In this document: one piece after another, positions 1 through 62,236 of the stretch
Position numbering within the stretch: the first letter of the stretch is position 1
How the letters are laid out: the number at the start of each line of letters is the position of its first letter
Assembly (NCBI RefSeq): GCF_000787575.1
Contig: NW_012236527.1
Location: 930,001 to 994,000 of the forward strand
DNA length: 64,000 bases
DNA from: Acytostelium subglobosum LB1
Taxonomy: Eukaryota; Evosea; Eumycetozoa; Acytosteliales; Acytosteliaceae
Reading direction: 5' to 3'
The notes under the pieces: generated by a model
What the model was told of the DNA's origin: nothing
What the model saw: the letters and a program-made list of their open reading frames with translations, nothing else
Databases searched by the model: none
Translations under genes and position numbers: made by a program

Positions 1-2
1 CT

Positions 3-623
3 GCATACCCATGGATGAACATTCAACCTCGTTGGAACGTTTGGGCATCAGACTGTGGAGTTGGAGTGCCATTGTACCAGTTCTCTGATGACACTGATCA
101 AGATGGTGATGAACCAACCAGATACTTTTTGTCACTGAACAAACATGAACCTGATTGGACATTGATTGGAGTAGTCGGTCATGTGTCACCAGTCCCGGAA
201 ACCTGGTGCAACAAACCAATCCATCGATATAGTTGCAAGTCATCAGTCAACAACACCAATCTATTTGCATTTGATTCAGAGGCACCTCTCGCTCATGATA
301 ATGGCAATCAAGTATGGGTGGACAATGATGTTGTGTTCTATGTCATCGATCCTGTCCATTTGGAGAAGGAGAAACCGATTGAATATCCAATTGCGAGGAT
401 CACCTCAATGATGGGATATTGCGATGATGATAATGATGATAGCTTAGATGGTGCTGGAGCTCAACAACATGGCGATTCAGTGAATGAGACAGAGTCTATA
501 GTAGTTGGAACCGTTTCAAACAACAACAACAACAATACCATATCGCATCAGGACAAGATTGATCAACTCCAAATAGAACTTGATGAGTTGAAGAGGTCGC
601 TGATGAAGGCAAAGAATCAATAA
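3..623 (+). CDS. C-terminal fragment of an ILEI/caspase-like family protein (runs off left edge)
   Basis: The frame is open to the left edge and stops at 621-623, giving about 206 codons. The protein matches the last ~215 residues of the gene ending at 11067 almost throughout, including NIQPRWNVW, KHEPDWTLIGVVGHVSP and HRYSCKSSVNN, so this is the tail of a paralogue. The conserved block has aromatic 'PLYQF' and 'HRY' motifs that faintly recall DUF5648-type modules (tentative). An acidic Ser/Asn-rich linker and a short terminal coiled coil (DKIDQLQ...LDELKRSL) follow. The first ATG in the window, at 15, is internal and not the true start. The 3' end faces the next gene, which runs on the other strand. 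Function unknown. Confidence 0.75.
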   Translation, partial: AYPWMNIQPRWNVWASDCGVGVPLYQFSDDTDQDGDEPTRYFLSLNKHEPDWTLIGVVGHVSPVPETWCNKPIHRYSCKSSVNNTNLFAFDSEAPLAHDNGNQVWVDNDVVFYVIDPVHLEKEKPIEYPIARITSMMGYCDDDNDDSLDGAGAQQHGDSVNETESIVVGTVSNNNNNNTISHQDKIDQLQIELDELKRSLMKAKNQ

Positions 624-753: not shown

Positions 754-3700
754 CTATTCTATCCTGTCTTGGTTTTTGTTGATAGGGTTTGGAATGTGGA
801 CTGGGGCAAGGAAGAAACTCCATCCATCGCGGCCCTGGAATGGTATCAGGTGTGGTTGACCAAAGATGTAGATTTCATCTTCACCTTCGATCACAATCGG
901 TTCGTTATTATTCTCCTGGAATGGTATACTAAGGTGTTGCACTGTAGTATTGTAGTTAAATTGTGGATTGAGAAGGGGGCCATTCAGATAGGCAATGGGC
1001 TCAATTGTTGTCAAGGAATTGGCTTGGCATACTGGAAGGCCGAAACAAGGTTGGAACTGAGCATTGTTGTCAAAGAACAATCCAGCGTTACAGGAATTGA
1101 TCAAGACTGTATTGTTGATGCTAGGATCCAAGGTGATGAGTTGTTGGACTTCAGTTCCGAACATGGGTCTGTCCAAGAGCTCAAATGCGTATTGGCCATG
1201 ATTATCTGCACCGTGACAAAGGAAGAAGGTGTAGTTGACATCACCAGTCCTCTGATAGAGACTCCTAGAGTTCAACTCTCTATTCACATTGACTGACAAA
1301 GGCATCTGATCAGTGGTGGTAGTTTCTTCTTCAATCAGCTGGGTGACTCTAACATAAACGACGAGGTCGTTTCGTTCCTGCATCAATGATAGTGCGACTG
1401 CATTCAGGTAGTGATAGATGCCTGTCACATGGTTGGTTAACACATCGGCTGCACCTGCGAGCACGTCCTCGCCAGTCCCCAGGTATTGGAGTCCAATGAT
1501 AAGTGCTCTGAGAGTGATGACAGTGATTCCAGACATGGGCGGGGTCAAGGCACCAGCACTCGAAACTAAGTTTGTAAGCATTTTGGGGGAGAATCCATGG
1601 ACCCTGTTTGGACTGCTATCCCCACTCAAGTATAGGAGCTGATTGCGGAAGACGTCCACTTGGAATTGGGTTGGCGATGGAGGTTGAGTGGTGGGTGGTA
1701 GAGCACCGGTCGGTATCATAGTGGAGTTGGAAACAACTGAAGGTTGTTCATCTTTGGAGATAACCTCGTGACCAGTACCAATTCCACTACCCTTGGTGCC
1801 GGTGGCGAAGTAGTATGGCGATACAGCCTTCATTGCTTCTTTGAACATTGAGAGTCCAAGCATGATAAATGCCTCACACAACTTCTCGGTCAACTCTAGC
1901 TGGTTGGTGATGGAGATGATCACCACTGCTCCGACTGGGAGATTGTAGATAAGATCGTAGAAGTTGTCTCCAGTTCCAGTGACCTTGAATGACTTGACCT
2001 TCTTGACTTGGTCGATTGAATATGTTCCAGGTACTGGGTACACTTTGATGTTATCGATCATAGTTCCAACTGGATTGCCATCAACAGTTATACCATTTGT
2101 TGTGACTGTGAGTGATGAGTACAGCTGGGTTGGACTATAGAGCTGACGAACTGGCATTCGGATTGAAGAAATGGCAACTGAGTTCTCGATCGTGTCTCCA
2201 GCAGAGTAGGATTGGGCAGGGGTGGACATGTTTTGTTGTCCAATTGGAGAAGCAATGCCAATGATTGAATAGGATGATCCCTTTTGAATGGGATAACCGT
2301 AAGTGATACCACCAAGTCGATAGTTGAGAGCAGTGCGTAGTGTTACTGTCATGCACTGGACCCAGTCATTGCATGATCCGATAGCGACAAGCTTGCCAGC
2401 TTCAATCGAGTTGATGAAGGTCTCCATTCTGTTAGACTCATCAACTGAGGATCCAGTTGCGAAGGATGCAACTATCTCAATCTCTCCAGTGATAATGTTA
2501 ATGATCATGACATTGAGGCCAGAGCGATAAGTGAATGGTACTACCTCTCTAGAGTTGAAATAGAGTTTGGTGAAGCCAGAGTTGTCAGTTGGTGATTTTC
2601 TCTAGTTAAGTGGTATTCAAAGAGTTAATATACATATACCTCTCAATCAATCAATGATTGGTTTAATCTATCGATTAAGAATACATACACCACTGCTCTC
2701 AACTCGAGCTTCTACGAATGGCTTGACACTGTAGTCCTTGCTTGCGAAGTAGGTAAAGAGGGACACTGGTCCCCTAAATGATAGTAGTTCGGGGACTGAT
2801 CCTGGTGTTGATCCTTTCCTTCCGGCGATGACGTAGGATCCATTATTTTTGAGATTCTTGATCAAGTTGGAACCAATACCTCTATATGCTTCAATAAGTT
2901 TGGGGTTCAACGAATCGTAACTGGTTGGGCATGGGGCAGAACAGACTATGACTAGTGAACCAACTGATACATTGAATAAAATGTAGTCCGCAGCATCTGA
3001 CTGGGTGATTTGATTGGGACCATTTGGTGTGGATGTGTCGAACACTATCTGGAAGTGATCCAATACCACACGAAGTGATTCATCCACAATGGTCATGACA
3101 AGTACAACATCTGGAGAGGTGTTGCCGGCCATTGCAGATACTGGTACACCGTTGATGGTAGTACGACAACCATTCTTGCCGTTAGCTCTTGAACATGACC
3201 CAACAGACACACTTGTGGAAGGGAAGGTGGTCATGGGTGGGTAGTAGACACCTTGGCAAACGATGTTTGTGCCAGCGCTGGACTCACAACATGATCGGCC
3301 ATTGGATGATATCATGTACCACTTGTTTTGGTCACTCTGATCAATGAACTGGTTTAGGTATTGACTGCCAAGGGTGTTGTTGATGACATCAACTGATTGC
3401 TTGGTAAGTCCAAGGGGTTGACCATCATTGACATTGGCCATCACTATGACAAGTGTGCTGCCATCTTGTGATTGTGACTTTATATGTTGAATGAACTTGT
3501 TGTTCTCATCCATCCTGGTGGCATTGTCAACTGCCGTAGTGTTGAAGTTGATGTTGGATACAACTTCAAGTGAGTCCTTGAGAACCACAAACACGTTGAG
3601 ACCGAGTTTGTACACAAACTCGAAAGGCCAACCATTGATAATGACCCTGGCCGATGAGTTGTTGACCAAGCTCACCGAGAGTTGGTTTGGGATGGTGCAG

Positions 3701-4110
3701 TCTGGACTGAGGTTCATAATGACACTGGTGCCGGTGATGGTCTCACGTGCAGTGCCCGGGGCCCATCCTTTGAAGCCACACACCAAGTAGAGCGATGTAG
3801 TGGGGGCAGTGAGTTGGGTGACCTGGACAGCGCCAATTGCGGAGAGTGCTCGGAAGAGAGGGTCGGACACATATGAACCTTTTCTGATGGATATCGCAAC
3901 AGCTGTTCCACCTGGAAGGGAAGAAATATTATCCAATACTGTTTGGCCATCAGCCTCTGATTGCAATCTTAGGCTCATGGCTCCCCATGGTGATCCAGAA
4001 TTTTTTTGACTCCAGAACAAATTGCAGTCTGAGCTTACTGTTGGTGTGATGGCAATTCCATCGTATATTATGGCTCCGTCGATACAACTAATACTTGAAC
4101 CCTGTCCCAT
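754..4110 (-). CDS. ILEI/FAM3-like repeat protein with caspase-like (C14) domain, catalytic dyad retained
   Basis: There are two exons, 4110-2689 and 2601-754, split by an 87-nt phase-0 intron (GTATGT...TAG), giving 1089 aa. About five modules of ~150-180 aa repeat the pattern 'GLNV...P.G..V.I......LG...Y...G.KG..PG...E' (GRKGSTPGSVPE, CGFKGWAPGTARE). This is the pattern I associate with ILEI/FAM3-type domains. Residues ~840-990 look like a caspase/metacaspase p20 fold: RALIIGLQYLG, FFLCHG with His937 (codon 1215-1213) and VLINSCNAG with Cys978 (codon 1092-1090), so the Cys-His dyad appears present. No signal peptide or TM segment is visible. The C-terminus lacks the tail block of its paralogues. 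Activity and substrate are unknown; the domain calls come from recalled motifs only. Confidence 0.75.

Positions 4111-4158
<48 letters not shown>
4111..4158. repeat. (TAA)n microsatellite directly upstream of a start codon
   Basis: About 16 uninterrupted ATA/TAA units begin at the base next to the ATG (4108-4110) of the minus-strand gene. On the mRNA strand the 5' leader would read (ATT)n up to the start codon. Confidence 0.9.
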
Positions 4159-4872
4159 TAATAAGTAAATATAAGGATATATTTAGTAGTTATAACAATG
4201 TTATTGTTGATTTTGATATCCAAACATTGATTAATTGGATGTCAATTTATACCTTGTTACTTTGTCGATCTATGTGGATCTTTGAAGTATGATACTCAAC
4301 ATGATTTGTCAGGTTCTCAATTGATATTGGTATTGGAATTGTAGACAAACTCAGTTCATAATTTGTTCTTGGTCTTACAAGAATGTTGATCAAAGTTAAA
4401 ATTTGAGTTTTTTGTTTCTCGAAACGAACGACAAAGTCCGATACCATTTGGAACAAATCCCCATATTACGGGGGGCTATCTATATATAAACTTGAGTACA
4501 ATCTCAAATTACGTTCACTCAAATTTTCATACATCCCATTGATTAGGACTTGTCATTGGAATTAATCAATAAGAGACTTCTGTGAACAGACAGTGTGGTG
4601 GATGGGACTCGCGGAAACCCATCAATAATCCAAATCTCAAGTTGTTTCGACGACAACAAACTAATCTTTCAATTCCTCTTTTCAATTTATAAATTGATTC
4701 GTCATCACTATTGATCAACAAATTTGAGTGTGACGCATGTCACTTTTCTAAATTAAGAAAATTCAACAATGCAATGTTACATGGATACCGCCCGTCATTC
4801 TCCTTTGATTCCTTTGAAACACTCTTCGAAAAACGATTGTATTCCAAAGGTGAGAGTGTGTGATTGATTGAG
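4159..4872. other. Non-coding stretch between the (TAA)n repeat and the transposon
   Basis: AT-rich sequence with no convincing ORF. It is the promoter side of the minus-strand ILEI/caspase-like gene. A TATATATAAA stretch near 4480 and a short G run near 4468 are the only notable motifs. Confidence 0.6.
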
Positions 4873-4938
4873 TATTGTCCTCCTGATTCAAGTTCGTGAC
4901 AAAGTTTTGAATTTTGAATTATGAAGTTTGAAAGTTCA
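4873..4938 (+). repeat. Left terminal inverted repeat of mariner-type element
   Basis: Starts TATTGTCCTCCTGATTCAAG. All 66 bases match the reverse complement of 6514-6579, and the similarity ends sharply beyond it on the inner side. The first TA is probably the target-site duplication. Confidence 0.9.
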
Positions 4939-5062
4939 AATTTGGAAGGATAGAATGGAAATAATTTTATTTATTTATTTTTATTGGGCACAAAATAAAA
5001 TATTATTAAATATGAAATATATTTTGTCTGAATAAATAATATTACATTTATAAATTGTTTAT

Positions 5063-5335
5063 TTAATCGGATGGATGGTCCATATCATCATCATTTTCAT
5101 CATCATCATCAAAAGTATCATCGCNAGACTCATCATCGCTCAATAACTCATCAAAAGTTATTTTGCGGGAATAAGGAGTAGGTCGAGTGTACCTGCTCTG
5201 GTTGCTTTGGATGATGCTCCTGCCTCTGCTACTGGAAAGGCTGTTGATACTGCTTCCAGGTGTTACACCAAATAACAAGTCCATGTCTGTTTGTTGATAG
5301 GAATCTTTGACATGATTCACCAAACTGGCGATCAT
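5063..5335 (-). CDS. Small acidic ORF inside the transposon, antisense to the transposase
   Basis: A 90-residue ORF with one N at 5125. An in-frame stop lies shortly upstream of its ATG, so the start is well bounded. The N-terminal half is Ser/Arg-rich (SSRGRSIIQS), then KITFDELLSDDES is followed by a strongly acidic Asp/Glu tail. No family is recognised. It may be a second protein of the element, a captured host fragment or a chance ORF. Confidence 0.35.
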   Translation of the reverse strand: MIASLVNHVKDSYQQTDMDLLFGVTPGSSINSLSSSRGRSIIQSNQSRYTRPTPYSRKITFDELLSDDESXDDTFDDDDENDDDMDHPSD

Positions 5336-5533
5336 TGTTGTGACGACTTGTCACATACGATTCACGATGTGTCACCATGACTCATACATTCTATCATTGC
5401 TGAGTCATCATCCTGGAATCTACAGAACACTATTCCATGTTCCATCTAATCAGTATATATACATCATTCATAATACACTAATAAAGCGGGCATTCTATAC
5501 ATTATACAGTTATACATATATATATATCTATAT

Positions 5534-5769
5534 TTGTTATACTTTTTTATATTTTATTTTTTTTATTTGAAATATTTTTTATTTTGTTCCAACAATATTT
5601 ATATATTTATATATATTTTCTTTGATAAGAAAGTGGAGAGACTCAATAGATACGTTGCTAGACGCAAAAGAGAACTAGGATTAATAATGAACAATAATCA
5701 AGCCTTGCCCCAGGCTCAACCAGTACTACAGCCAGTACAACAGGAAGCACAACCACAACTGCCAGCACA
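5534..5769 (+). CDS. Possible N-terminal part of the transposase, running into the assembly gap
   Basis: The frame is open into the N gap. Its last part is basic (RLNRYVARRKRELGL), then Gln/Pro-rich. It has the same orientation as the DDE region and could be the DNA-binding end or a linker. The first part (poly-Phe/Ile/Tyr from AT-rich DNA) is probably not coding; an inner ATG at 5687 is possible. Continuity across the gap is not shown. Confidence 0.3.
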
Positions 5770-5869
5770 NNNNNNNNNNNNNNNNNNNNNNNNNNNNNNN
5801 NNNNNNNNNNNNNNNNNNNNNNNNNNNNNNNNNNNNNNNNNNNNNNNNNNNNNNNNNNNNNNNNNNNNN
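5770..5869. other. Assembly gap of 100 Ns
   Basis: A run of exactly 100 Ns, the usual placeholder for a gap of unknown size. It lies within the transposase region, as expected where repeat copies broke the assembly. Confidence 0.95.
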
Positions 5870-6422
5870 GTGTAAGTCAAACAATCAACAAACTAACAAT
5901 ATTACTCACATTATTCAATCATTAGATCTACGCAAGACACTTGTGGTGGGTCCAATCAACAAGACAGCTATAATCAAGACCAAGAACCCAATTGAGGAGT
6001 CTTGCAACTTCATGTGTGCAATCAACTATGATGGCAAGATGTGGATTTCACAGCGAACGTCGACGAATGACGCCCATGACTTTGGCCTCTTTGTAAAGGA
6101 TCTGGTCAAGAATGGTGCACTGTCAGCAAACAAATTCCTGATTATTGACAATTCACCAATTCATGGTGGCGCATATCTCCACGAGCTGTATCAGACAGTG
6201 GAGTCAGTTGGTGCCAAGCTAATCTTTTTGCCTAAGTATTCGCCAGAGCTAAACCCAATCGAGCTAGTGTTTGCCTTTGTCAAGAACAATCTNCGACATC
6301 GGCAAATTGACAACTTCCATTTGGCCATCATTGAAGCGTTCCAGCAAATAACATTGGAGTACACCAGGAATATTTACCGGCACTGTCTCCACCCTGGCGA
6401 TAAAAAGAAAAATGATAAATAA
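5870..6422 (+). CDS. DDE_3-type transposase, C-terminal part (Tc1/mariner/IS630 superfamily)
   Basis: The frame is open from the gap to TAA at 6420-6422. A typical RNase-H-like transposase core is visible: FLIIDNSPIHGG holds the second catalytic Asp, and LIFLPKYSPELNPIELVF is the hallmark block with the final acidic residue. The first catalytic Asp should lie upstream, in or before the gap. Part of the sequence just after the gap (GTAAGT at 5872 to TTAG at 5925) could be a short intron, but the frame stays open without splicing. One N lies at 6293. The product would cut and paste the element at TA sites. No other break is seen in the visible part, but completeness cannot be judged. Confidence 0.8.
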
Positions 6423-6513
6423 ATAGTTAAATGTGGATTCATGGCAATATGAATTTATTCAAATATTATTTATTAATTTATTATCAATTCATTCCATTCC
6501 ACCAATCCAAAAG

Positions 6514-6579
6514 TGAACTTTCAAACTTCATAATTCAAAATTCAAAACTTTGTCACGAACTTGAATCAGGAGGACAATA
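6514..6579 (-). repeat. Right terminal inverted repeat of mariner-type element
   Basis: Perfect reverse complement of 4873-4938 over 66 nt, ending at TA (6578-6579). Confidence 0.9.
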
Positions 6580-6948
6580 TCTCCCCCAAAAAACCAACTT
6601 GGATTTTTGGACTGGATTTTGGAATTTGACTTTTCAACAACTCGAGAACTGAATTTGCAACCCAAATTCAGCCGATCAACCCAGGTGCCAAAAACTTTTG
6701 AAATTCAAGTTTGAGACTTGGTGATCAATGTTGACTAAGAGGTGATGATGGTGGTTTGGGTGAGGGTGGGTTTGCAAACTAATATTTTAATCCCAACTCT
6801 AGCTAAAGTTATCAAACTCACTTTGCACAATTTAATTATTTAAACTCTCTCATTCTCTCATTCATTCAATCAATCAAACTCTTTTGTATAATAATAATAA
6901 TACTAATATTATATATATTTACTTCATTTAATCACATATTTAACAAAC
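6580..6948. promoter_or_regulatory. Upstream region of the plus-strand ILEI/caspase-like gene
   Basis: No ORF of interest. It becomes strongly AT-rich and ends in an A-rich leader just before the ATG, typical of dictyostelid 5' flanks. No specific factor site can be supported. Confidence 0.5.
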
Positions 6949-9900
6949 ATGTCTATGTATCCTCGTTTCCCAACTATTATGAGGTTGGTGTCTAGTACAC
7001 CCACTGCATCAGTGTTTGAAAGGAATGGGATGAACTTTATTAATAATTATATTCCAAAGGGCTTCGGACCTGGTTTCAACATATGGATCAAGGACAGTCC
7101 GGGAATCCTGCCAGATAAGTTCCGTTTCTTCAACTTCCCATACTCAAATGAAGCCGAATTTATTCAACTTGTTGCCGCCAGTAATAGAAGTTGTGGATTT
7201 ATCAAGATTGGTACAATGGTCCTTGTTATCAACATTGGTGCAATGTCTACAACCCCCTCCCCCGCCCTTTGCCAAGCCTTTGGAACTCTTGGATGCTCAC
7301 AGATCTACCCTGCCGGTACCTCTGGAGCCACCAACTATTGTATGATTGGGTACAAAGGACAAGCACCAGGATCAGCCCAAGAGTCATTTGGTGATGGATC
7401 AACTGGTAATGTGACAGTGACCGGTACCTACCAGAACTTCTATGATTGTACCCGTGTCCTTGGATTCAGTTACAATGCTACAACAAGCAATCCTATTGGC
7501 AACTTGGATATCATGTTGGGCAACATTCCCATCTTACCAAACTCCTTCAAACCTTTGGGCGATGGAATCAATGTTGTCACTCTCAACAGTACTCTCTGTC
7601 TACAATACAAACAACAACAAATAACAAACTTCCCAACGATGAACTATGATGCCAATGTCTCCAAAGCCCTCGCCCAGTACATTGATTCCATTGCCAAGGG
7701 TACAGTAGTGATGATCGTTGCTCGTGGATTGAACCTATCCAAGACAAGTCTCAACTCTGATGCCATTCAGAGTCTTCAAAGATTGGGCAGTAAGTGCATC
7801 CTGAACTTCAAACAAAATGACTCAAACGATTGTTGGTTCATGTTTTTGAAGAAGGGCACTCCATCGATCTATACTGAGATGGCATTCAATCATTCATCAC
7901 CATGCACTGCCTCAATCCATTACAACTTGATCAACAATGAGTTGATCACTCAGAATAAGACAGTGAGTGATGATGACATCAACATCTACGTTGCAACATC
8001 CAATCCCATATATGCTCCCATTGGTATTCAGAACTTCATCATCACAGTTGGAGGTGTGCCCGTCACATTCCAAAGCAATGCAGGTCTGCTGATGTGTGCA
8101 ATCAGTGAGGTCGATGGCAAATTGTACTTTGCTCGTAACTATGATGTCAGAAGTACATCGGTCAATAGCACGCTTCAAATGATCGCTGACATCATGTCCA
8201 TCTCAGTTGGTACACTGGTTGTCATCTGCACAGGAGTCCTAAGTCAAGACTTTGCCATCTCAGACAACCTTGCATTCGCAATGACCACATGTGGCAGCAA
8301 AGTGACGGTCAACCCAATGACCTCATCATCGTCATCTGCATTGATTGGGCGGAAGGGAGCACCATCAGGCTCAGTACCCGAGATCCTCTCATTCACAGGA
8401 CCAGTCTCACTCTTATCAAACTTCAAGAGACAATTCAAACCTGTCAAGCCATACGTCCACATCAAGGCTGCATCCAATGCTGTATGTATCCACATTCGAT
8501 CAACCAATCATTCATTCATTCGATCAATCTCTAACATAACCTCTCAATCAATCAATCAGACACCATCAGTTGCACCAGACCCTTCATACATCTTCACCAA
8601 TGGACTACCTATCTCTGGTACTTTTGGACCTGGTTTGAATGTTGTGGCCATCAATCCAATCAACGGAACAGTGATATCTTCAAACAACTATGACACCACT
8701 GATGCCGCTTCCCAACCTCGACCAAGTGGCAAGTTCACCACTGATATCACTGCCCTGCCACAAGGTACCATCGTAGCCTTGTCCACACTTGGGTCTGCGG
8801 GTACCTACCTTGGCACTGCCCGAGACACCATCACCAACTACCTTGGTTCCAAGATGATGACATCTTTCACCTCCAATCAATCATATTGTATCGTCTCAAC
8901 GGTTGGTCTCAACCTCACAGGTGATACGAGAGTGATGAGTGAGTGTATTGCGCCAACCAGTTCATACACATCATGTGACTTTCGATTCCCGTTGAAGTCA
9001 CTCTACACAAACACTGGTCTGACCTTCTGTGTCACATCTGGACAACAGAGTCGCATCATGGTCAACAATCAATCGGCCCTGCCCACCACAACGAACGGAA
9101 TCAACTTAGTCACGGTCGATCCCGTCAGCGGAGCCGCCAGTCCATACTATTTCAACACATCTGGATCGGTTGCACAATGGCAGGTGTTGTACAACTTCAT
9201 CCAAGCACTCCCAGTTGGTCAGTTTGTCTTGATCTCTGTTCAACAATCGATGGGAACACCAACAACACCTCAATCCAAGCGATACCAGATGATGGCTTTG
9301 ACAATGATTGGTGCATGTCAGTTTATCTGTGTTGGACCAGAGTCCACTTACTCTGTGATTGGCACTCGTGGAGCATGTCCTGGATCAGCATTCGAATCAT
9401 TCAATGGCAAGAGTATCCAGGTGTGTGTTGGATCATGGGAGCCAAAGACACCGACATCATTGGTTGGCAGCTCTCAGTATGGAATGATGCCCTTTGAGGC
9501 ACCAACCTTCGCCGTGCCTGGGTTGACCAACATGTATCAACACGAATCACCAATGGCAATCATCCCAAGCAACAAAGCATTTGGCAACATCTTCAGAGCT
9601 GAGCCAGCATACAATGGGACACTTCTTCACCCAGCTGGTCGTGTCACCAAGGCTCTCTTGGTGGGTTTGTCATACTACAACACAGTTGAACAACCCAGTC
9701 AAGGCATCGAGTTTCAAATCCAAGAACATGCTCGCGCGCTGGTCCAAGGTGGATATGTCTTGCCACAGAACATCCGTATGCTCACTGAGGGTTTGACAGA
9801 GGTCTCCAACGATGGAACATATGTCAACGGACCATCATGGCTGTGCATCAAGAATGAGATTATCAACTGGTTGGTGGCGGGCGCACAGGCTGGTGACACA

Positions 9901-11067
9901 CTCTACTTTGTGTTCCTCGGTCGTGGCTTCTCGAGCGACACCTACCCATTTGGATTGGTCACCATGAACAAAGACTTCACTGCAGCCGACTACACCAATT
10001 TGACCATCGATGACTTCAAGTTCTGTTTCTCCTCACTGGCCGCTGGCGTCAACCTCACATTGTTGTTGGATTGCTCATACTCATCGGACATAGTGTCAAC
10101 GTGGTCACCAGGCATCCTGACCCAGACCTCAGGACTGTTTGCCACATCCCCATACAACATACTCACGCCATCAACTCAACAATCGATTGGACTTACACCA
10201 ATGGTCACTCGCATCCTCAAAGAGAGTGGATCAACTCAGTTGACTTATAATCAGATCATGACGCAAGTGCAGGCAGAGATGTATATTCGTGGAACACCGA
10301 CGTTGCTCAATGGCGGAGATAAAGTGTTCTTGAGTAATACATCAACACTACAGATCCATCAACATCAATCAACATCTGGCGATGAGTACCAATACCGTTA
10401 CACGACCGACACCAACACGTCGTACCCATGTATGAACATTCAACCTCGTTGGAACGTTTGGGGATTGGATAGTGGAGTTGGAGTCCCATTGTACCAGTTC
10501 TCAACCGATCATACTGGTGATGGATCGAGCAGATACTATTTGTCACTGAACAAACATGAACCTGATTGGACATTGATTGGTGTAGTCGGTCATGTGTCAC
10601 CAGTGCAGACCACCAATTGCAACAAACCAATCCATCGATATAGTTGCAAATCATCAGTCAACAATGCCAACCTGTTTGCATTTGATTCAGAGGCACCTCG
10701 CACACATGGCCGAGGTAATCAAGTATGGGTGGACAATGGTGTTGTGTTCTACGCAATCGATCCTGCCCATTTGGAGACGGAGAAACCGATTGAATATCCT
10801 AGTGCGAGGATCACCTCAATGATGGGGTATTGCGATGATGAAGATGACAACTCTGATAGTACTGGAGATCAACATGATATGTCAGTGAATGAGAGTACTG
10901 ATTCATCATCAATGGATACATCAGACGAAACAGATTCGTTTGTAGTTGGATCCGATTCAAACAACAACAATGATACCATTATGCATCAGGACAAGATTGA
11001 ACAACTTCAGAGACAAATTGATGAGTTGAAGAGGTCTCTCCTTGCAGCAAATAATCCAATGAAGTAA
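6949..11067 (+). CDS. ILEI/FAM3-like repeat protein with degenerate caspase-like domain and C-terminal coiled coil
   Basis: Exons 6949-8481 and 8560-11067 give 1346 aa. The 78-nt intron (GTATGT...CAATCAG) keeps the frame open and would add 26 Ser/Asn/Ile-rich residues if retained. It sits at the same place and phase as the intron of the minus-strand paralogue. Five ILEI/FAM3-like modules (IGYKGQAPGSAQE, IGRKGAPSGSVPE, IGTRGACPGSAFE) are followed at ~870-1080 by a caspase-like domain: KALLVGLSYY, GDTLYFVFLGRGFS and LLLDCSYSS. At the dyad positions it has Arg966 (codon 9922) instead of His and Ser1017 (codon 10075) instead of Cys, so it looks like a pseudo-protease. The C-terminal block, acidic linker and coiled coil are shared with the left-edge fragment. 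No signal peptide or TM segment is seen. Confidence 0.8.
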   Translation: MSMYPRFPTIMRLVSSTPTASVFERNGMNFINNYIPKGFGPGFNIWIKDSPGILPDKFRFFNFPYSNEAEFIQLVAASNRSCGFIKIGTMVLVINIGAMSTTPSPALCQAFGTLGCSQIYPAGTSGATNYCMIGYKGQAPGSAQESFGDGSTGNVTVTGTYQNFYDCTRVLGFSYNATTSNPIGNLDIMLGNIPILPNSFKPLGDGINVVTLNSTLCLQYKQQQITNFPTMNYDANVSKALAQYIDSIAKGTVVMIVARGLNLSKTSLNSDAIQSLQRLGSKCILNFKQNDSNDCWFMFLKKGTPSIYTEMAFNHSSPCTASIHYNLINNELITQNKTVSDDDINIYVATSNPIYAPIGIQNFIITVGGVPVTFQSNAGLLMCAISEVDGKLYFARNYDVRSTSVNSTLQMIADIMSISVGTLVVICTGVLSQDFAISDNLAFAMTTCGSKVTVNPMTSSSSSALIGRKGAPSGSVPEILSFTGPVSLLSNFKRQFKPVKPYVHIKAASNAVCIHIRSTNHSFIRSISNITSQSINQTPSVAPDPSYIFTNGLPISGTFGPGLNVVAINPINGTVISSNNYDTTDAASQPRPSGKFTTDITALPQGTIVALSTLGSAGTYLGTARDTITNYLGSKMMTSFTSNQSYCIVSTVGLNLTGDTRVMSECIAPTSSYTSCDFRFPLKSLYTNTGLTFCVTSGQQSRIMVNNQSALPTTTNGINLVTVDPVSGAASPYYFNTSGSVAQWQVLYNFIQALPVGQFVLISVQQSMGTPTTPQSKRYQMMALTMIGACQFICVGPESTYSVIGTRGACPGSAFESFNGKSIQVCVGSWEPKTPTSLVGSSQYGMMPFEAPTFAVPGLTNMYQHESPMAIIPSNKAFGNIFRAEPAYNGTLLHPAGRVTKALLVGLSYYNTVEQPSQGIEFQIQEHARALVQGGYVLPQNIRMLTEGLTEVSNDGTYVNGPSWLCIKNEIINWLVAGAQAGDTLYFVFLGRGFSSDTYPFGLVTMNKDFTAADYTNLTIDDFKFCFSSLAAGVNLTLLLDCSYSSDIVSTWSPGILTQTSGLFATSPYNILTPSTQQSIGLTPMVTRILKESGSTQLTYNQIMTQVQAEMYIRGTPTLLNGGDKVFLSNTSTLQIHQHQSTSGDEYQYRYTTDTNTSYPCMNIQPRWNVWGLDSGVGVPLYQFSTDHTGDGSSRYYLSLNKHEPDWTLIGVVGHVSPVQTTNCNKPIHRYSCKSSVNNANLFAFDSEAPRTHGRGNQVWVDNGVVFYAIDPAHLETEKPIEYPSARITSMMGYCDDEDDNSDSTGDQHDMSVNESTDSSSMDTSDETDSFVVGSDSNNNNDTIMHQDKIEQLQRQIDELKRSLLAANNPMK

Positions 11068-11182: not shown

Positions 11183-11253
11183 TGCGCATGCCGAGAATCG
11201 AACTCGGATCGCTTCCGTGGCAGGGAAACATTCTACCATTGGACCACATGCGC
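11183..11253 (-). tRNA. tRNA-Gly (anticodon GCC)
   Basis: On the minus strand a full 71-nt cloverleaf folds: acceptor GCGCATG/CATGCGC, D arm with AATGGTAGAAT, anticodon loop CTGCCAC (GCC), T arm CCGAG-TTCGATT-CTCGG and discriminator A. There is no intron. It reads glycine codons GGC/GGU. Confidence 0.95.
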
Positions 11254-24558: not shown

Positions 24559-26906
24559 TTAGGTACTTCCTTCATACATTGGGTTGTTACCAGAGGCTGG
24601 GTTCTGAGTGTAGAGTGGGTTGCTGTTGAGCGAGGTGACCTTGTTCTCACGAGAGTTCTTCCAATAGTCATATCCCTTCTTTCCACCGAACACAGCAATG
24701 GCAGCGGCGACGGCAGCGGCCACAACAATACCAGCAATCACACCGGTGGAGATGACAGCAGCCTTGTTACAGCCGAATGGCAATGGTGAGTAGTCGTGGA
24801 ACTCGCACTTCTGTGTCTCGTTGTTGCAGACACCGTATTGGCAATCAGGGTTGGATGGAATACAGGTCTTGGCAAAGGTGATACATCCGAGACGCGGATC
24901 ACAGAGGACATCTTGACAGAAGTCTGTTGGCTGAGTGCATGTCCTGTTGGCGAGACCACATCCACCTGTAGTTGAACAGATACCAACTTGGCAGAAACCG
25001 AGGTCTGGACACACGGTGGCGTTGTGAGCACATCCATCCAATGGATCACAAGTGTCATCAGTGCAAGGGTTGCCATCATCACAAGAGGTTGGAAGGTACG
25101 AGCATGTGCCATTAGTGCATACTCCAATGTTGCAGACATTGCCATTGTTGCATTGGGAGGCAGTGTCAGTGCAGCCACCTGCAGCCTTGGAGCATGTCTG
25201 GCATCCACTGCAAGACTTTGGTGTGTGGCTGATCACTCCAGTCACTGGATCACAAGTGTCATCAGTGCATGGATCGTTGTCGTTGGTGTCAACGTCGGTG
25301 TAGGCACACTTGCCAGATTTGGTGTCACAGTTGGCAACCTTGCACTTTGGTGTCTTGGTTGGATCACAACATCCACACTCAGTGCTGTTGAGCAACTTGG
25401 TCTGGCATCCTGCACTTGCATCACAGGAGTAGATTGTGCATGGTGCTGGTCCAGCCTGTGGGATACAGGTCTTTGGCTTGCTGATACATCCTTTGGTATT
25501 GTCACATGAGTAGTCAGTGCAGATTGGGTCGGTACCATTGCAGTTCACTGGAGTGGTGTCACAGTTCTGGGTCTTTGGGTTGCAGACAACGGTTGTGCAG
25601 GCGTCTGGAGCAACACATTTGGGCCTGTACTGGCAACCTCCGAGCGAGACGTCACACTTGTCCAACACCTTGCAGTTGAGAGCTGGACAGGTCTTGTCTG
25701 AGGTCTTCTTGCAAGTACCACCAACACAACCATAGTTGTAGCAAGTGCTGTTCTGAGTGCAAGTCATTGGAGTATGGGTGCAGAATGTCTTCCAGTTGGA
25801 CGAGGTAATACCTGGAGTCTTAACGGATGGACACTTGTCAATGGTGCATGGATCGCGGTCGTTACAATGGGAGGCAGCGTTACAACATGAAGTTCCATCA
25901 CCGTTGCAGACACCGCAGTAGTCAATGTAAAGACACTTGACAGCAAGGTTGGTGTCAATCCTTATTGTGGAGGTGGAGGTATGTCTCTCACAATAGTAGA
26001 AGTCAAAGGCATATGTGTTACCCTATTAGTTGATAGAGGTTTGTCAATATTTGATTGATTGATCAATAAGGTTAGAAACTTACAGGAGTTAGGTCAAGAT
26101 CCCTAAGAGTGATGTTCTGAGATTCGGCAGCATGGATACCACCAAGGTCGACAACAAGCTTGTTGTCAATGAACACCCAAACATCATCATCACCTCTGAA
26201 GTTGAATACCTCGTTTCCCTAAATAATTGATTGAAATATTAATGGTTAGTATGACTCGTCGAACAATCACAAATATTGCAATGAATGAATGGAAAATACA
26301 TACGACGAATGTGAAGTATGAGTTCATCTTCATACAGAAATGGAAGTTGTGATATTCTCCATTTCTATCGGTCCATCGTTGATAGTCTGAATTCTCATCG
26401 AATCCCTTATAGTCCAATGGGAAGAACACTTGGTTATCGACTTGGTAGATACCAGATGAACCGGACTGGGTGAAGGTGAGGTTGTAGTTCACAAACTCGG
26501 TGATACCTGGCTCGTTGGTAAAGAAGTAGGCAAACTTGGAGCGATCGACAATGAGAGCGTTAGGAGAGACGAATTTGTTCAAGGTTGGGATCTTGGTGAT
26601 AGGGTTCAAATTCTCATTCACAATCTCATAGGTCAGTCCACCATAGACGGAAATATCCGGTTCAAAGTTTGAATTATAATCAGGATACTGATCAAACATT
26701 GACACCGAGATGGTGAATGATTCTATATTTGTTTGAATTAAATTAAAGAATAAAAGAATAATTGATTATGTTAGGATTTTATTATTTGATACATCCTCGA
26801 GGATATATGGATGGATTGATGGATACATACTTGGACGTTGTCCTTGGACTTTGAATAAAATGCCAAGTAATAAAATACATAAAGTTAATGATTTAATATT
26901 ATACAT
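24559..26906 (-). CDS. PSI-factor-like type I membrane protein (PA14/fibro-slime + CTDC repeats), copy 1
   Basis: Exons 26906-26831, 26722-26304, 26218-26084 and 26022-24559 give 697 aa. Layout: signal peptide ([17 protein letters not shown]); PA14/fibro-slime domain at ~40-215 ([43 protein letters not shown]); Cys-rich repeats of the Dictyostelium CTDC type ([21 protein letters not shown]); TM helix ~631-657; and a cytoplasmic tail with NPLY and NPMY. Relatives in D. discoideum include prespore-cell-inducing factor (psiA family), which suggests cell-cell signalling or adhesion during development. It is the first of four tandem copies. All splice phases are consistent. Confidence 0.9.
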
Positions 26907-27733
26907 TGTGGTTGTTATTATTTTTATGATTGAATATAACTATAATTATAACAAGAATAGGAGGAAGAAAAGTTTAAGTTTATAATGACTTTAAGGTTAC
27001 CTATTAAACAGTTACCAATCAACAACGACACAACAACAAACAAAACATAATCTCGATATTATCCATCGGCTATTCCAGGTGAATGCCACCTAAGTGGAGT
27101 TTGACGGTGATAATCACCTGGGTGGAATGAAGGAAAGAAAGAAGTGAGCCACATCACCACCATTCGTTTAATGAATGATCATCCATGTATCCTATTAACC
27201 AATTGGGGCAATGTCAAACCCACTTTAGAATGATTACAAGGACTAACTTGAAGGAGGGAGTGGATCATTCATTTAAACTGAGTCTATCGACAATGGTCCA
27301 AGTGAACCACATCGATCGAAACTCGCGTTCCTGTCCAGAAAGTGCCGAAATACTAAGCTTTGATTAATCCACAACTCGCATGTCGTCCTCAAGATGCAAG
27401 TATTCTCGGCAACTGGTCAACCCTTGAGATCTCCCTCGGGTCAATCCCCCCTTTTTCGGAAGAAGGCCTCCAAAATGCACTTCGTTTGCAGGATGATGTA
27501 TTGGTTTATTCATCCAACATGGTCATCCTCCTCAACAACAGGATATCTATGTTTAGCCAAACAGATTATTTGTAAGTCGGCAATAATCATAATAATATGG
27601 CAATTAATGATGCAACACAGATAGATAGATAATTATTATTATTAATGGAATTTATATTTAGAAATAAATACGTTTGGAAGGAAGTATGTCTTCTTTGCTT
27701 GTTCGACATTCGCACATTCTCTCTCACAACTAC
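26907..27733. other. Intergenic region between PSI-like copies 1 and 2
   Basis: AT-rich promoter side of copy 1, then mixed sequence with an imperfect inverted repeat near 27075-27125 (CAGGTG...CACCTG). Short ORFs here are not convincing. Confidence 0.5.
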
Positions 27734-30099
27734 TTAGTTACTGGCGTACATTGGATTGTTGCCAGAGGCTGGGTTCTCGGTATAGAGTGGGTTGCTGTTG
27801 AGTGAGGCGATCTTGTTCTCACGAGAGTTCTTCCAATAGTCATATCCCTTCTTGCCTCCAAAGACCATGATGGCCAGAGCGACTGCACCAGCAACAACGA
27901 TACCAGCAATCACACCGGTGGTGATCACTGCAGCCTTGTTACAACCGAATGGCAATGGTGAGTAGTCGTGGAACTCACACTTTTGAGTGCCATTGTTGCA
28001 GACACCGTATTGGCAGTCAGGGTTGGATGGAATACAGGTCTTGGCAAAGGTGATACATCCGAGACGGGCATCACACATCACATCTTGACAGAAGTCTGTT
28101 GGCTGAGTGCATGTCCTGTTGGCGAGACCACATCCTCCTGTTGTTGAACAGACACCAATCTGACATAGGCCGAGGTCTGGGCATGTCGTGGCGGTGTGTG
28201 CACATCCATCCAATGGATCGCAGCTGTCATCAGTGCAAGGGTTGCCATCATTACATGTGTTGGGGACGAATGAACATGTGCCATTGGTGCATACTCCAAT
28301 GTTGCAGACGTTTCCATTGTTGCATTGAGTGGCCGTGTCGGTGCAACCACCTGCAGACTTGGTGCATGTTTGACATCCACTGCAAGACTTTGGTGTGTGA
28401 CTGATCACTCCAGTGGTTGCGTCACAAGTGTCAACAGTGCATGGATCATTGTCGTTGGTGTCAACGTCGGTGTAGACACATTTACCAGTCTTAGTATCCA
28501 CATGTTGCAACCTTGCACTTGGGTGTGTTGTTTGGATCACAACATCCACACTCAGTGCTGTTGAGCAACTTGGTCTGGCATCCCTTTCCGGCAGCACAAG
28601 AGTAGGTCGTGCATGGAGCTGGACCAGTCTGTGGGATACATGTCTTTGGCTTGCTGATACATCCTTTGATCTTGTCACATGAGTAGTCAGTGCAGAATAG
28701 ATCGGTACCATTGCAGTTCACTGGGGTAGAGTCACAGTTCTGGCTGGTTGGGTTGCAGACAACTTTAGTGCAAGCATCTGGAGCAACACACTTGGGCTTG
28801 TATTGACAACCTCCAAGAGTGACATCACACTTGTCCAACACCTTGCAGTTCAAAGCAGGGCAAGTCTTCTCTGAGGTCTTCTGGCAAGTACCACCAACAC
28901 AACCAATGTTAAAGCATGTGTTGTTCTGAGCGCAAGTCATTGGAGTATGGGTGCAGAATGACTTCCAATTGGATGGAGTGATGCCTGGTGTTGTAACAGG
29001 TGGACACTTGTCAATTGTACATGGATCATTGTCATTGCAATGAGCTGGGGCGTTACAGCATGAAGAACCATCACCATTACAGATTCCACAGTAGTCTATG
29101 AACAGACACTTCACAGCAAGGTTTGTTTGGATACTAATGGTAGAGGCATCGGTATGTCTCTCACAATAGTATAAATCAAAGGCATAAGTGTTACCCTAAA
29201 GTATTTGATTGTCAGTTAGTATTTGTTGTTGTGATAGAGGTTGAATGAGAATGAACAATGTTTTGTTGTTGAATGAACAACAATGTTATGCGTGTGAATA
29301 GATGTGTTCCAAGAAATACATACAGGAGTAAGACCAAGATCCTTGACAGTTACATTCTTGGCGGCGGCTGGATGAGTACTGCCCAGATCCACAGCCATCT
29401 TGTTGTCGATGTACACCCACACATCATCATCTCCTCTGAAGTTGAACACTTCATTTCCCTAATTAGGACGAACAGATTGATGTACACAATGTGTTAGTGA
29501 ATGATGTTGTCAATGAAGTGATGAATGATTAGCAATACATACAACAAAGGTGAAGTATGAGTTCATCTTCATGCAGAAATGGAAGTTGTGATAGTTGCCA
29601 AAGCCATCTCTGTAGACACGCTTGGCGGGATCAACGTCGAATCCTTTGTAGTCAAATGGGAAGAACACTTGGTTGTCAATGCCGTAGATACCAGTATTAC
29701 CAACTTGGTTGAAGGTCAGGTCATAGCTCATAAAGTCAGTGATGCCAGGTTGATTGACAAAGAAGTAGGCAAACTTGGCGGTATCTACAATCACACCAGC
29801 CTTAAGGTCGGCTGTTGGACTAAGTACAGGGATCTTGGTAATTGGATCCAAGTTTGGAGTCACAATACCAAGCACAGGAAGTCCACTGTTACCAGTGAGG
29901 TCAGCCTCAAAGTTTGGATTGAAGGCAGGGTATTGATCAAACAGTGATACAGAGATGGTGAATGAGGCTAGAGATAAATAAAGTGTAAGTATATTTGATT
30001 ATATTTTAAGTTTGATTGTTACATACGTGGACGTTGTCCTTGGACATTGAAAACAATGCCAAACATTAGAATACATAATAGGACTTGGTATTGTTCCAT
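27734..30099 (-). CDS. PSI-factor-like type I membrane protein, copy 2 (apparent frameshift)
   Basis: Exons 30099-30027, 29967-29543, 29458-29324 and 29195-27734. Same layout as copy 1: signal peptide ending NVQGQRP, PA14/fibro-slime domain, CTDC-type Cys repeats, TM helix, and tail [19 protein letters not shown]. In the last exon the frame breaks at about 28498-28499, in the CKVATC/DTKTGKC repeat: one extra C on the plus strand relative to the paralogues. The frame on each side is otherwise fully open, so this is either a recent null allele or a sequencing error. Without the extra base the product would be about 697 aa. Intron number and positions equal those of copies 1 and 3. Confidence 0.8.
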
Positions 30100-30936
30100 T
30101 TTATTATTACTTTATAAATAAATAGTTATTATTATTATTATGGATACTAATAATAGGAGAAGTGTAGAATGAATGATGAAGTTGAATGGATTGAGATGGT
30201 TCGATCATGATGTTGATTGACACGGTATGTCTTTAACCAACGAGATGAAGATTGATTGCCACAACATTGTGGTGTAGTTGCTTATGGAAATGATGAGGAA
30301 CACGTAGTTTGGTTAAAGTAATCTAAAGAGAGATAGTGAATCTTACGTTCTAAATAATATTAATTTAATTGATATTATTAAGATTCTTTATCACATATCC
30401 GATCGACAGACATGAATCTTGTCTCTTTCTCTCCACCAATAACACCTTTGCTTGATGTCCAGGACAAACAACCACACTACCACAAGATCACTGATCACAC
30501 TCATTGATGACCCGAACTATGAAGGTTTGGGGGTGGACTGGTCCATCAAATCTTGCTCGTAAAATTAATAAAAGATATTATTTTGATCATGATCTTCCCC
30601 ATTAATGGGCGTAAGATATTGATAATTTGGCAAGAGATACATATAACCATAGTGCAAATGTTAATGAAGTTATCTTATCTTGTCCATGCCCATGTCAGTG
30701 TCAGTGTCCTTGTCCCTGTCCAAGCCCAAGGTACATCTAGAAGTATCTCATTCATTGATGATCTTCAAGTTGATTATACAGATAATACATAATAATAATG
30801 TTTATTTAAATAAATACATAGTGGATGGTGGCGTTGTCGATCGGACATGGACATGGATGGATAGACTTCGAAGTCATACCAGAACAAAAAAAAGCGGGAC
30901 GTCCAATGAATGAATGACCTTAGGTAGTACTAGGTC
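30100..30936. other. Intergenic region between PSI-like copies 2 and 3
   Basis: AT-rich near copy 2, then mixed composition. No gene or RNA supported. Confidence 0.5.
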
Positions 30937-33332
30937 TTAGTTGTTGCCGTACATTGGATTGTTGCCAGAGGCTGGGTTCTGAGTGTAGAGTGGGTTGCTG
31001 TTGAGTGAGGCGATCTTGTGGTCACGGGAGTTCTTCCAGTAGTCGTAACCCTTCTTGCCTCCAAAGATCATGATGGCAAGAGCGACGGCACCGGCAACAA
31101 CGATAGCAGCAATCACACCAGTTGAGATCACAGCAGCCTTGTTACAACCGAATGGCAGTGGAGAGTAGTCGTGGAACTCACACTTCTGAGTGCCATTGTT
31201 GCAGACACCATATTGGCAGTCAGGGTTGGATGGCACACAGGTCTTGGCAAAGGTGATACATCCGAGACGCGGATCACAGAGGACATCTTGACAGAAGTCT
31301 GTTGGTTGAGTGCATGTCCTGTTGGTGAGGCCACATCCACCTGTTGTTGAACAGGCACCAATCTGACAGAGACCGAGGTCTGGGCATGTCGTGGCGGTGT
31401 GAGCACATCCATTCAAAGGATCACAGCTGTCATCAGTGCAAGGGTTGCCATCATCACATGTGTTGGGGACGTATGAGCATGTGCCATTGGTGCACACTCC
31501 AACATTGCAGACGTTTCCATTGTTGCATTGAGTGGCAGTGTCGGTGCAGCCACCAGCAGCCTGGGTACATGTCTGGCATCCACTGCACTTGACTGGTGTG
31601 TGACTGATCACTCCAGTGGTTGCGTCACAAGTGTCAACAGTGCAAGGGTTTCCATCATCAGTGTTGACGTTGGAGTAGACACAGGTGCCGGTCTTGGTGT
31701 CACATGTTGCAACCTTGCACTTTGGTGTCTTGGTTGGGTCACAGCAGCCACATTCAGTGCTGTTGAGCAACTTGGTCTGACATCCAACGCCGGCAGCACA
31801 GGAGTAGACAGTGCATGGAGCGGCACCAGTCTGTGGGATACATGTCTTTGGATTGCTGATACATCCCTTGGTCTTGTCACATGAGTAGTCTGTGCAGAAC
31901 TTGTCTGTACCATTGCAGTTCACTGTAGTGCTGTCACAGTTCTGGGTGGTTGGATTGCAGACAACGTTGGTACAAGCGTCTGGAGCAACACACTTGGGCT
32001 TGTATTGGCAACCTCCGAGCGAGACGTCACACTTGTCCAATGTCTTACAGCTAAGGGCTGGACAGGTCTTGTCTGAGGTCTTCTGGCAAGTACCAGCGAC
32101 GCAACCATAGTTGGTACATGTGTTGTTCTGGCTGCATGTCATTTGTGTGTGGGTGCAGAATGTCTTCCAGTTGGATGAGGTGATACCTGGTGTGGTAACG
32201 GATGGACATTTGTCAATAGTGCATGGATCATTGTCATTACATGAGGCGGCAGCATTGCAACATGATGAACCATCACCATTACAAATTCCACAGTAGTCAG
32301 TTGTCAAACACTTGACAGCAAGGTTGGTATCAATTCTGATAGTTGAGGTGGTAGTATGTCTCTCACAATAGTAGAAGTCAAAGGCATAAGTGTTACCCTA
32401 ATAGTTGATTGATTGATTAATTGTTTGTTTGTTTGATTGATTGAGTGAGTGTTAATAGTTGCCCGAGAATGGTCTGACAGTGTCACGAGCCAAGATTATA
32501 CATACAGCTGTGAGTCCAAGAGTCTTGAGTGTGATGTTCTTGGAGGCGGCAGAGTGGACTCCACCGAGGTCGACTGCAAGCTTGTTGTCAATGAACACCC
32601 AAACATCATCATCACCTCTGAAGTTGAATACCTCATTTCCCTGTTTGATTGATTACATAAGTGATATGAAGTTAGTTCATCATTGTCCAATTGATTGAAT
32701 GGATGGATGGATGATACATACGACGTAGGTGAAGTATGAATTCATCTTCATACAGAAATGGAAGTTGTGGTAGTTTCCATCGCCGTCTTGGTAGATTCTC
32801 TTGGAGGCATCAGTGTCGAATCCCTTATAGTCGAATGGGAAGAACACTTGGTTGTCGACCTGGTAGATACCGGATGAGCCGGACAGGGTGAAGGTGAGGT
32901 CGTAGCTCATAAAGTCTGTGATGCCAGGCTGGTTGGCAAAGAAGTAGGCAAACTTGGGCTTGTTGACAATGAGGCCGTCAACAGTGTCGGCGTTTGGGCT
33001 CAGAGTTGGGATCTTTGTAATTGGGTCCAAGTTGTAGTTTACCAAACCTGGAATAACTCCACTATGTCGGCTGTTATCAGCCTCAAAGTTTGGATTATAT
33101 TCAGGGTATTGATCAAACAATGATACAGAGATGGTGAATGAATCTAATTATGAAGTTTGATTAATTAGTAAATACAATAATTGATTGATGTTGATAGGAA
33201 TGATTCCAAGGTGTGATTGATTGAGTGGAATGATTCCATGGTGTGATTGATTGATTGATACATACTTGGACGCTGTCCATAGACAATACCTAGGAGTAGT
33301 ATACACAATAATAGTGATTTAGTTCGTTCCAT
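30937..33332 (-). CDS. PSI-factor-like type I membrane protein, copy 3
   Basis: Exons 33332-33266, 33143-32722, 32640-32506 and 32397-30937 give 694 aa, intact. Signal peptide ([16 protein letters not shown]), PA14/fibro-slime domain ([21 protein letters not shown]), the C-G-x-C-N-G-D-G-S-S-C-C junction, about a dozen CTDC-type cysteine modules, TM helix ([20 protein letters not shown]) and tail [19 protein letters not shown]. The first intron falls at the same phase-1 point after QRP in every copy. Its C-terminal half is closest to copies 2 and 4, as expected from local duplication or gene conversion. Confidence 0.9.
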
Positions 33333-59388: not shown

Positions 59389-59560
59389 TTATGGCGATGA
59401 AGAGCCATCTGGTGTCATACTTAAAGGCGAGCTTCCATCTTCTTTTCTGCTTCTGGATAAACCCTTTTCGTTTGGTGTTTCGTCCTCAGAGTCCAAACTG
59501 ATAATGGATGTGGGTGAAGGATACGTTGTAAGAATTGGTAGCTGCTGCTGCTGCTGCTGC

Positions 59561-59620
<60 letters not shown>

Positions 59621-62043: not shown

Positions 62044-62236
62044 CTTCTATATATTTATATATATTGTATGTTTATCTGATAATACTACAATGATCATATG
62101 ACTTGTTCGTTTGGACTCAAAAAGATTCTTGTATTCTTTGAATCTGACATATGCGAAAAACGTACAATAGTCAGATCTGGACTTCACTTCGAGTGTTGAT
62201 CAGTTGTTCATCAATTCACCAATCATAGAGAAGAAG

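What the first reader, a model, noticed from the sequence alone, without database searches (positions are those of the whole stretch)
754..11067. Cluster of ILEI/FAM3-like repeat proteins fused to a caspase-like domain
Two complete genes and one fragment encode proteins with about five ~150-aa modules bearing the 'G-K-G-x-x-P-G-x-x-x-E' signature I associate with ILEI/FAM3 (GG) domains, followed by a C14 peptidase-like domain. I know of no described protein with this architecture. The lack of signal peptides and TM segments points to an intracellular sensor/effector-like design. The clustering and orientation suggest local duplication. The domain assignments are from motif recall.
Basis: partly seen in the sequence, partly recalled or inferred. 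Interest (0 to 1): 0.8.

Follow-up and report, generated by a model that had tools for sequence, protein, structure and literature searches.

The report
ILEI-repeat caspase enzyme and pseudoenzyme pair
A social amoeba carries a duplicated pair of neighbouring genes for proteins with five ILEI repeats in front of a caspase-like part, one with the protease residues in place and one with both lost but still preserved, which looks like an enzyme and its inactive partner.

Summary
The window is from Acytostelium subglobosum LB1 (protein names). Genes B (-, 754-4110) and C (+, 6949-11067) each have five ILEI stretches (Pfam) and then a caspase-fold domain. Pfam misses that domain; phmmer to T. brucei metacaspase 2 (E 0.0014), profile-profile comparison with bacterial C14 and, weakly, a low-confidence model show it. 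New here: B keeps the His/Cys dyad, and a broken paralogue reads GHG/SCHAG. C has Arg/Ser instead, as in 3 of 3 copies holding the sites, yet this dead domain is the region with the lowest dN/dS. The divergent B/C unit exists in three copies, two side by side; only the window unit has both frames open. ILEI joined to a caspase-fold-type protease is known in bacterial sequences: 7 of 9 ILEI ORFs found also hold Peptidase_C25. The ILEI sugar-binding triad is intact in 0 of 41 amoeban matches. Most likely an enzyme/pseudoenzyme pair; activity, pairing and role are inferred.

The parts
754..4110 (-). Gene B: five ILEI modules then a caspase-like domain with His/Cys dyad; exons 4110-2689 and 2601-754, intron 2602-2688; 1089 aa
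   Evidence: public model P0003 (1045 aa)
1747..3942 (-). ILEI modules of B, approximate: 3942-3721, 3606-3259, 3105-2761, 2523-2215, 1959-1747
   Evidence: hmmsearch with an ILEI profile; Pfam 5 stretches
757..1545 (-). Caspase/metacaspase-like domain of B (approximate); catalytic-type His codon 1213-1215 (FLCHGA), Cys codon 1090-1092 (INSCNAG)
   Evidence: profile-profile of B plus its C46 paralogue with 8 bacterial C14 domains Prob 87.7, 0 of 60 shuffles reach it, B alone only Prob 7.9; paralogue reads FYIGHG/INSCHAG
6949..11067 (+). Gene C: five ILEI modules, caspase-like domain without dyad, C-terminal tail; probable in-frame intron 8482-8559
7066..9426 (+). ILEI modules of C, approximate: 7066-7407, 7558-7908, 8080-8409, 8626-8964, 9094-9426
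9640..10323 (+). Pseudo-metacaspase domain of C (approximate): Arg992 (9922-9924) in place of catalytic His, Ser1043 (10075-10077) in place of catalytic Cys
10324..11064 (+). C-terminal tail of C, no Pfam family over cut-off; acidic stretch and a short coiled-coil-like end seen by eye
   Evidence: coiled coil by eye only
1..623 (+). 3' end (tail only) of gene A, a broken C-type paralogue whose ILEI and caspase-like parts lie upstream of the window
4873..6579 (.). Transposon remnant between B and C: 94-nt inverted ends and a DDE_3 endonuclease fragment; not part of the pair

Best explanation
B and C are a divergently arranged pair of related proteins built from five ILEI modules plus a metacaspase-like domain. 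B is probably an active cysteine peptidase. C is a pseudopeptidase whose caspase-like domain has been kept by selection for binding, not for cutting. Most likely the ILEI arrays hold the proteins together or bind a ligand, and C regulates B or is processed by it, as an inactive partner of an active caspase-fold protease. Shown by sequence: architecture, presence or loss of the dyad, duplication of the unit, low dN/dS of the dead domain. Inferred: protease activity of B, physical pairing, intracellular (possibly myristoylated) location, any sensing role.
For: Five ILEI stretches in each. Metacaspase-type domain in C and in the B-type. B keeps His and Cys, and the broken paralogue on contig C46 has the more canonical FYIGHG and INSCHAG. 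C, A and C45 all have Arg and Ser at these sites. dN/dS of C against C45 is 0.168 in the dead domain, 0.294 in the ILEI modules, 0.363 in the linker and 0.332 in the tail; against A it is 0.228, 0.372, 0.495 and 0.396. A B-type gene or remnant lies divergently upstream of 3 of 4 C-type loci: the window C, gene A (remnant L031:3601-3825) and C46. The start MGQGSSIS of B fits an N-myristoylation motif (motif recalled; sequence).
Against: Pfam C14 hits neither protein. B alone scores only Prob 7.9 against C14; the strong score comes from its degraded paralogue (90.3 alone). B- and C-type domains do not align significantly to each other by hhalign (Prob 0.39-0.61). C45 has no B-type match in the 9.5 kb next to it (L049). 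dN/dS values are simple pairwise estimates without error bars, and A is itself broken. The structure model is low confidence (pLDDT 44) with Foldseek TM-scores near 0.33. No expression, activity or interaction data.
Confidence: 0.5

Rival explanations
1. A decaying, lineage-specific gene family without present function: the pair duplicated, most copies are broken, and the window copies are merely the last open frames.
For: Gene A has two frame changes and a stop; C45 has one frame change and no match to the first 168 residues of C; the C46 C-type copy lacks the caspase core, and the C46 B-type copy is a fragment with stops. Only A. subglobosum hits for the caspase-like parts, in lossy searches.
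Against: Both window genes have open frames of over 1000 aa once B's intron is removed; dN/dS of C is 0.17 to 0.50 in each of four regions against A and C45. The genome was Sanger plus Illumina (PMC4334915 passages), so some frame changes could still be assembly errors.
Confidence: 0.25
2. The C-terminal domains bind peptides or act in assembly only, in both B and C; no proteolysis is involved, and the His/Cys of B are incidental.
For: The B domain is divergent: B alone gives weak C14 similarity, and its motifs CHGA and SCNAG are less canonical than those of its own paralogue.
Against: His and Cys are both kept in B and in its C46 paralogue at 48-49% amino-acid identity and dS 0.97.
Confidence: 0.2
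3. Secreted or cell-surface ILEI lectins with a protease domain, like the bacterial ILEI-C25 proteins, rather than intracellular proteins.
For: Among the bacterial proteins FlgD_ig is over its cut-off in P0005 and in 3 of 9 ILEI ORFs (L051, L055, L058); CHU_C and Por_Secre_tail hits in L058, L063 and L064 stay under their cut-offs (that these mark secreted proteins is recalled). FAM3C is described as secreted (abstract starts). B has a moderately hydrophobic start (1.28).
Against: No hydrophobic start in C (0.41); the sugar triad is complete in 0 of 41 amoeban module matches against 6 of 11 bacterial ones. No signal-peptide predictor was run.
Confidence: 0.05

Closest known systems
T. brucei metacaspase 4 with metacaspase 3
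   Same: A metacaspase-fold pseudopeptidase with Cys-to-Ser that stays functional and is processed by an active paralogue (PMC6657590, passage read). C-type has the same Cys-to-Ser change.
   Different: ILEI modules are not part of it (recalled); C-type has lost the His as well (Arg). Processing of C by B is not shown.
Bacterial ILEI-Peptidase_C25 proteins (records titled Ignavibacteria/Ignavibacteriales, Melioribacter, Calditrichota, Bacteroidetes; and P0005)
   Same: ILEI modules and a clan-CD peptidase in one chain. Clan membership of C25 is recalled.
   Different: Gingipain-type C25, not metacaspase-like (B-type against C25 Prob 1.51, C-type 0.05); CARDB and FlgD_ig in several; one or two ILEI stretches each; 6 of 11 module matches keep the R-D-R sugar site.
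FAM3A-C, POMGnT1 stem, cell surface hyaluronidase 8c6i
   Same: ILEI domain; the profile of the modules matches these solved chains.
   Different: One matched stretch per chain, no caspase-like domain (recalled); the residues Arg129, Asp179 and Arg207 of POMGnT1 (PMC9802357, passages) are not kept together in any amoeban module match.
MALT1 paracaspase
   Different: Ig domains instead of ILEI, active site intact (recalled).
c-FLIP with caspase-8 (recalled, no call)
   Same: Dead caspase homologue regulating an active one.
   Different: Animal death-receptor system with DED domains.

Membership tests
ILEI (PF15711) | Profile match over Pfam's cut-off | tested here: met
   P0001 197.7 bits, P0003 133.7 bits against a cut-off of 27; 5 stretches each; profile of the modules hits FAM3A, FAM3B, FAM3C and POMGnT1 in the PDB.
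ILEI sugar-binding domain (POMGnT1-stem type) | Arg129-Asp179-Arg207 triad | tested here: not met
   0 of 41 amoeban module matches keep all three: Arg at the first site in 1 (gap in 13), Asp in 1 (gap in 2), Arg at the third in 0 (gap in 2). Bacterial control: all three in 6 of 11. Columns set by a P0005 probe; POMGnT1 numbering mapped by me from the alignment.
Peptidase_C14 (PF00656) | Pfam match over cut-off | tested here: not met
   No hit for B or C; six-frame search of the whole genome gave 0 candidates, control rang in 1 of 14.
Caspase/metacaspase fold (C14-like) | Remote homology by profile-profile comparison | tested here: met
   B-type Prob 87.7, C-type Prob 58.4 against 8 bacterial C14 domains; ILEI, CARDB and C25 at most 1.51; 0 of 60 column shuffles and 0 of 1 reversal reach either score; but B alone 7.9, its paralogue alone 90.3, C alone 55.6.
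Caspase/metacaspase fold (C14-like) | Predicted structure | tested here: inconclusive
Active clan-CD cysteine peptidase | His/Cys dyad in B-type | tested here: met
   His in CHGA and Cys in SCNAG of B align with the C14 His and Cys; also kept in its C46 paralogue.
Active clan-CD cysteine peptidase | His/Cys dyad in C-type | tested here: not met
   Arg992 and Ser1043 in C; the same in A and C45, 3 of 3 copies holding the sites; the C46 copy lacks the region.
Metacaspase | Proteolytic activity, Ca2+ dependence, Arg/Lys specificity | not testable with these tools
   Needs purified protein.
Peptidase_C25 (gingipain) | Profile match | tested here: not met
   No Pfam C25 hit in B or C; hhalign Prob 1.51 and 0.05.

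The most novel reading that the evidence does not exclude
A two-part, lineage-specific recognition system of a social amoeba: ILEI-array receptors, whose ligand pocket has changed from the sugar-binding type, working with an active metacaspase-like arm (B) and a dedicated pseudo-metacaspase partner (C) encoded head to head, expanding and decaying as a unit, like an immune or self-recognition gene cluster.
Probability: 0.15. Interest if true: 0.8.

Novelty: new variant of a known kind. Interest (0 to 1): 0.5.

Why it matters
If B is active and C regulates it, this would be an enzyme/pseudoenzyme pair of the caspase fold in an amoebozoan, joined to repeats of a domain best known from human secreted FAM3 proteins. 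ILEI beside clan-CD proteases in both bacteria and an amoeba suggests a recurrent functional link. The dead domain, with lower dN/dS than the rest of the protein, makes a direct test of a non-catalytic caspase-fold role possible.

Tried and rejected
Single-sequence AlphaFold2 model of the C-terminal part of C: pLDDT 31, discarded. DUF5648-like tail, suggested by eye: no Pfam hit and no genome hit at E 10 although the control rang in 2 of 14; rejected. Gingipain (C25) reading of the B domain: hhalign Prob 1.51; rejected. A GlcNAc-lectin reading of the ILEI modules: triad complete in 0 of 41 matches; downgraded. Viral C14 relatives for a deeper alignment: only 2 loci; a 5-row alignment misplaced B and L074 around the Cys, so both were dropped and 3 rows used. 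The C25 search of the own genome rang in no control either, so it shows nothing.

Limits of the searches. The three protein searches depend on shared short words and scored 7995, 7996 and 7996 candidates. They are lossy: one search did not return P0003 although it was a row of the query, and one search did not return gene C itself (its public model may be missing or of another length). Relatives in other dictyostelids are therefore not excluded. In the bacterial survey the pattern came from the KGAxPGSVPE motif, so 7 of 9 is not an unbiased rate: of 14 loci, 11 ORFs were scanned and 3 short ones (L054, L057, L061) were not; 9 of 11 had ILEI; of the 2 of these without C25, L058 is cut off by the locus end.

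Literature. No paper holds PF15711. Other searches on ILEI, FAM3, caspase, metacaspase, gingipain, Acytostelium and dictyostelid listed no title that describes this architecture, but most lists were capped: rows seen 20 of 104, 20 of 802, 12 of 137, 1 of 1, 6 of 6, 15 of 189. The library holds open-licence PMC papers only. Of papers cited I saw passages (PMC9802357, PMC4334915, PMC6657590, PMC9437275), none in whole.
Full report
Origin and gene models. The window is C51:930001-994000 of a 30.7-Mb assembly. Database proteins from contigs of the same lengths (1378670 for C51, 889228 for C45) are named Acytostelium subglobosum LB1. Gene B lies on the minus strand (754-4110, one 87-nt intron, 1089 aa). 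Its public model P0003 starts at a later Met (1045 aa). Gene C lies on the plus strand (6949-11067, 1372 aa read straight through; an in-frame intron at 8482-8559 is likely, because the public models of A and C45 skip the matching stretch). The fragment at 1-623 is the tail of gene A, whose rest lies upstream in L031.

ILEI modules. Pfam ILEI matches five stretches in C and five in the public model of B (by ORF). A profile from ten modules, eight from the window and two from P0005, finds FAM3A, FAM3B, FAM3C, POMGnT1 and a cell surface hyaluronidase in the PDB. The genome has 35 ILEI matches on 9 contigs at E 0.001, 34 of them over the cut-off. A search with the C- and B-type C-terminal parts at E 1 finds them only on C51, C45 and C46, so the ILEI genes on C52, C38, C55 and C44 show no such part; the one on C56 runs towards an assembly gap (L034, 4214 N in 9 kb).

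Active type and dead type. B reads FLCHGA and INSCNAG; the alignment to C14 places these His and Cys on the catalytic ones. A B-type fragment on C46 reads FYIGHG and INSCHAG, closer to the usual metacaspase form (usual form recalled and seen in the C14 set). C reads FLGRGF and DCSYSS: Arg for His and Ser for Cys; the T. brucei chain matched is a C213A mutant, and its Ala stands opposite this Ser. The same Arg and Ser stand in A and C45, 3 of 3 copies that hold the sites; the C46 copy lacks this region. Between C and C45 dN/dS is lowest in this dead domain: 0.168 (dS 1.04), against 0.294 in the ILEI modules, 0.363 in the linker and 0.332 in the tail. C against A gives the dead domain as lowest too (0.228, 0.372, 0.495, 0.396). 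The domain therefore seems to have been kept for something other than catalysis. These are simple Nei-Gojobori estimates computed on open pieces, without error bars, and A is broken.

A duplicated divergent unit. In the window B(-) and C(+) are head to head, about 2.8 kb apart, with a transposon remnant between them (94-nt inverted ends, DDE_3). Just upstream of gene A lies a B-like remnant on the opposite strand (L031:3601-3825, 42% identical, E 6.5e-8). On C46 a B-type fragment (-) lies at 843637-844212, upstream of a broken C-type copy (+) from about 848.6 kb. C45 has a C-type gene, with one frame change and no match to the first 168 residues of C, and no B-type match in the 9.5 kb fetched beside it (L049). 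So 3 of 4 C-type loci show a B-type partner or remnant, most simply by duplication of one ancestral pair. Of the copies seen, only the window pair has both frames open.

Ligand. POMGnT1-stem, FAM3C and FAM3A bind GlcNAc and other sugars, with Arg129, Asp179 and Arg207 involved in POMGnT1 (PMC9802357, passages read; similar statement for Arg129 and Asp179 in PMC9437275, passages). Mapped by me through the POMGnT1 alignment to P0005, all three are kept in 0 of 41 amoeban module matches and in 6 of 11 bacterial ones. Several of the 41 are partial matches or module halves from broken copies (first site a gap in 13, second in 2, third in 2). The amoeban modules therefore probably do not bind GlcNAc in the known way; a changed ligand or a structural role is more likely.

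Relatives. Three capped protein searches gave A. subglobosum proteins (P0002, P0003, P0004) and one metagenome protein, P0005, with ILEI, Peptidase_C25, CARDB, ILEI and FlgD_ig. The searches are lossy: one search missed P0003, a row of its own query. A DNA pattern for the ILEI motif gave 14 bacterial loci. Of 11 ORFs scanned, 9 have ILEI and 7 of these also C25. ILEI joined to a clan-CD peptidase thus exists in bacteria, with a different peptidase family. I found no metacaspase-like version outside A. subglobosum, but other dictyostelids are not excluded.

How it most likely works. B: membrane-near peptidase (the MGQGSSIS start fits N-myristoylation, motif recalled, not tested). C: pseudopeptidase partner. 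The nearest known precedent is T. brucei MCA4, a Cys-to-Ser pseudopeptidase that is functional and processed by MCA3 (PMC6657590, passage). The ILEI arrays would provide assembly or ligand binding. Activity, interaction, location and biological role are inference.

Verdict. It is a new combination of known parts, hence a new variant of a known kind.

Noticed in passing
window 4873-6579: Transposon remnant with 94-nt inverted ends (91% complementary) and a DDE_3 endonuclease fragment, partly N-masked, between genes B and C.
   Followed up: partly
window 24559-37206: Series of related cysteine-rich minus-strand ORFs (Dicty_CTDC repeats in the one scanned at 30940-32397; PA14 in the ORF at 36466-37203): a local expansion not far from the ILEI cluster.
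   Followed up: no
L053:5985-8000: Bacterial ORF joining TMEM260-like and PMT_2 mannosyltransferase domains to an ILEI domain, which recalls POMGnT1 (ILEI with an O-mannose glycosyltransferase).
   Followed up: no
window 59389-62046: FNIP-repeat protein (7 stretches) with long glutamine runs.
   Followed up: no
window 49543-52374: Protein kinase with an ASH/HYDIN-like Ig domain upstream of the kinase domain.
   Followed up: no
window 11183-11253: tRNA-Gly (gcc) on the minus strand just after gene C.
   Followed up: no
window 6949-11067: The gene C protein was not returned by a search with its own C-terminal region; its public gene model may be missing or of a different length.
   Followed up: no
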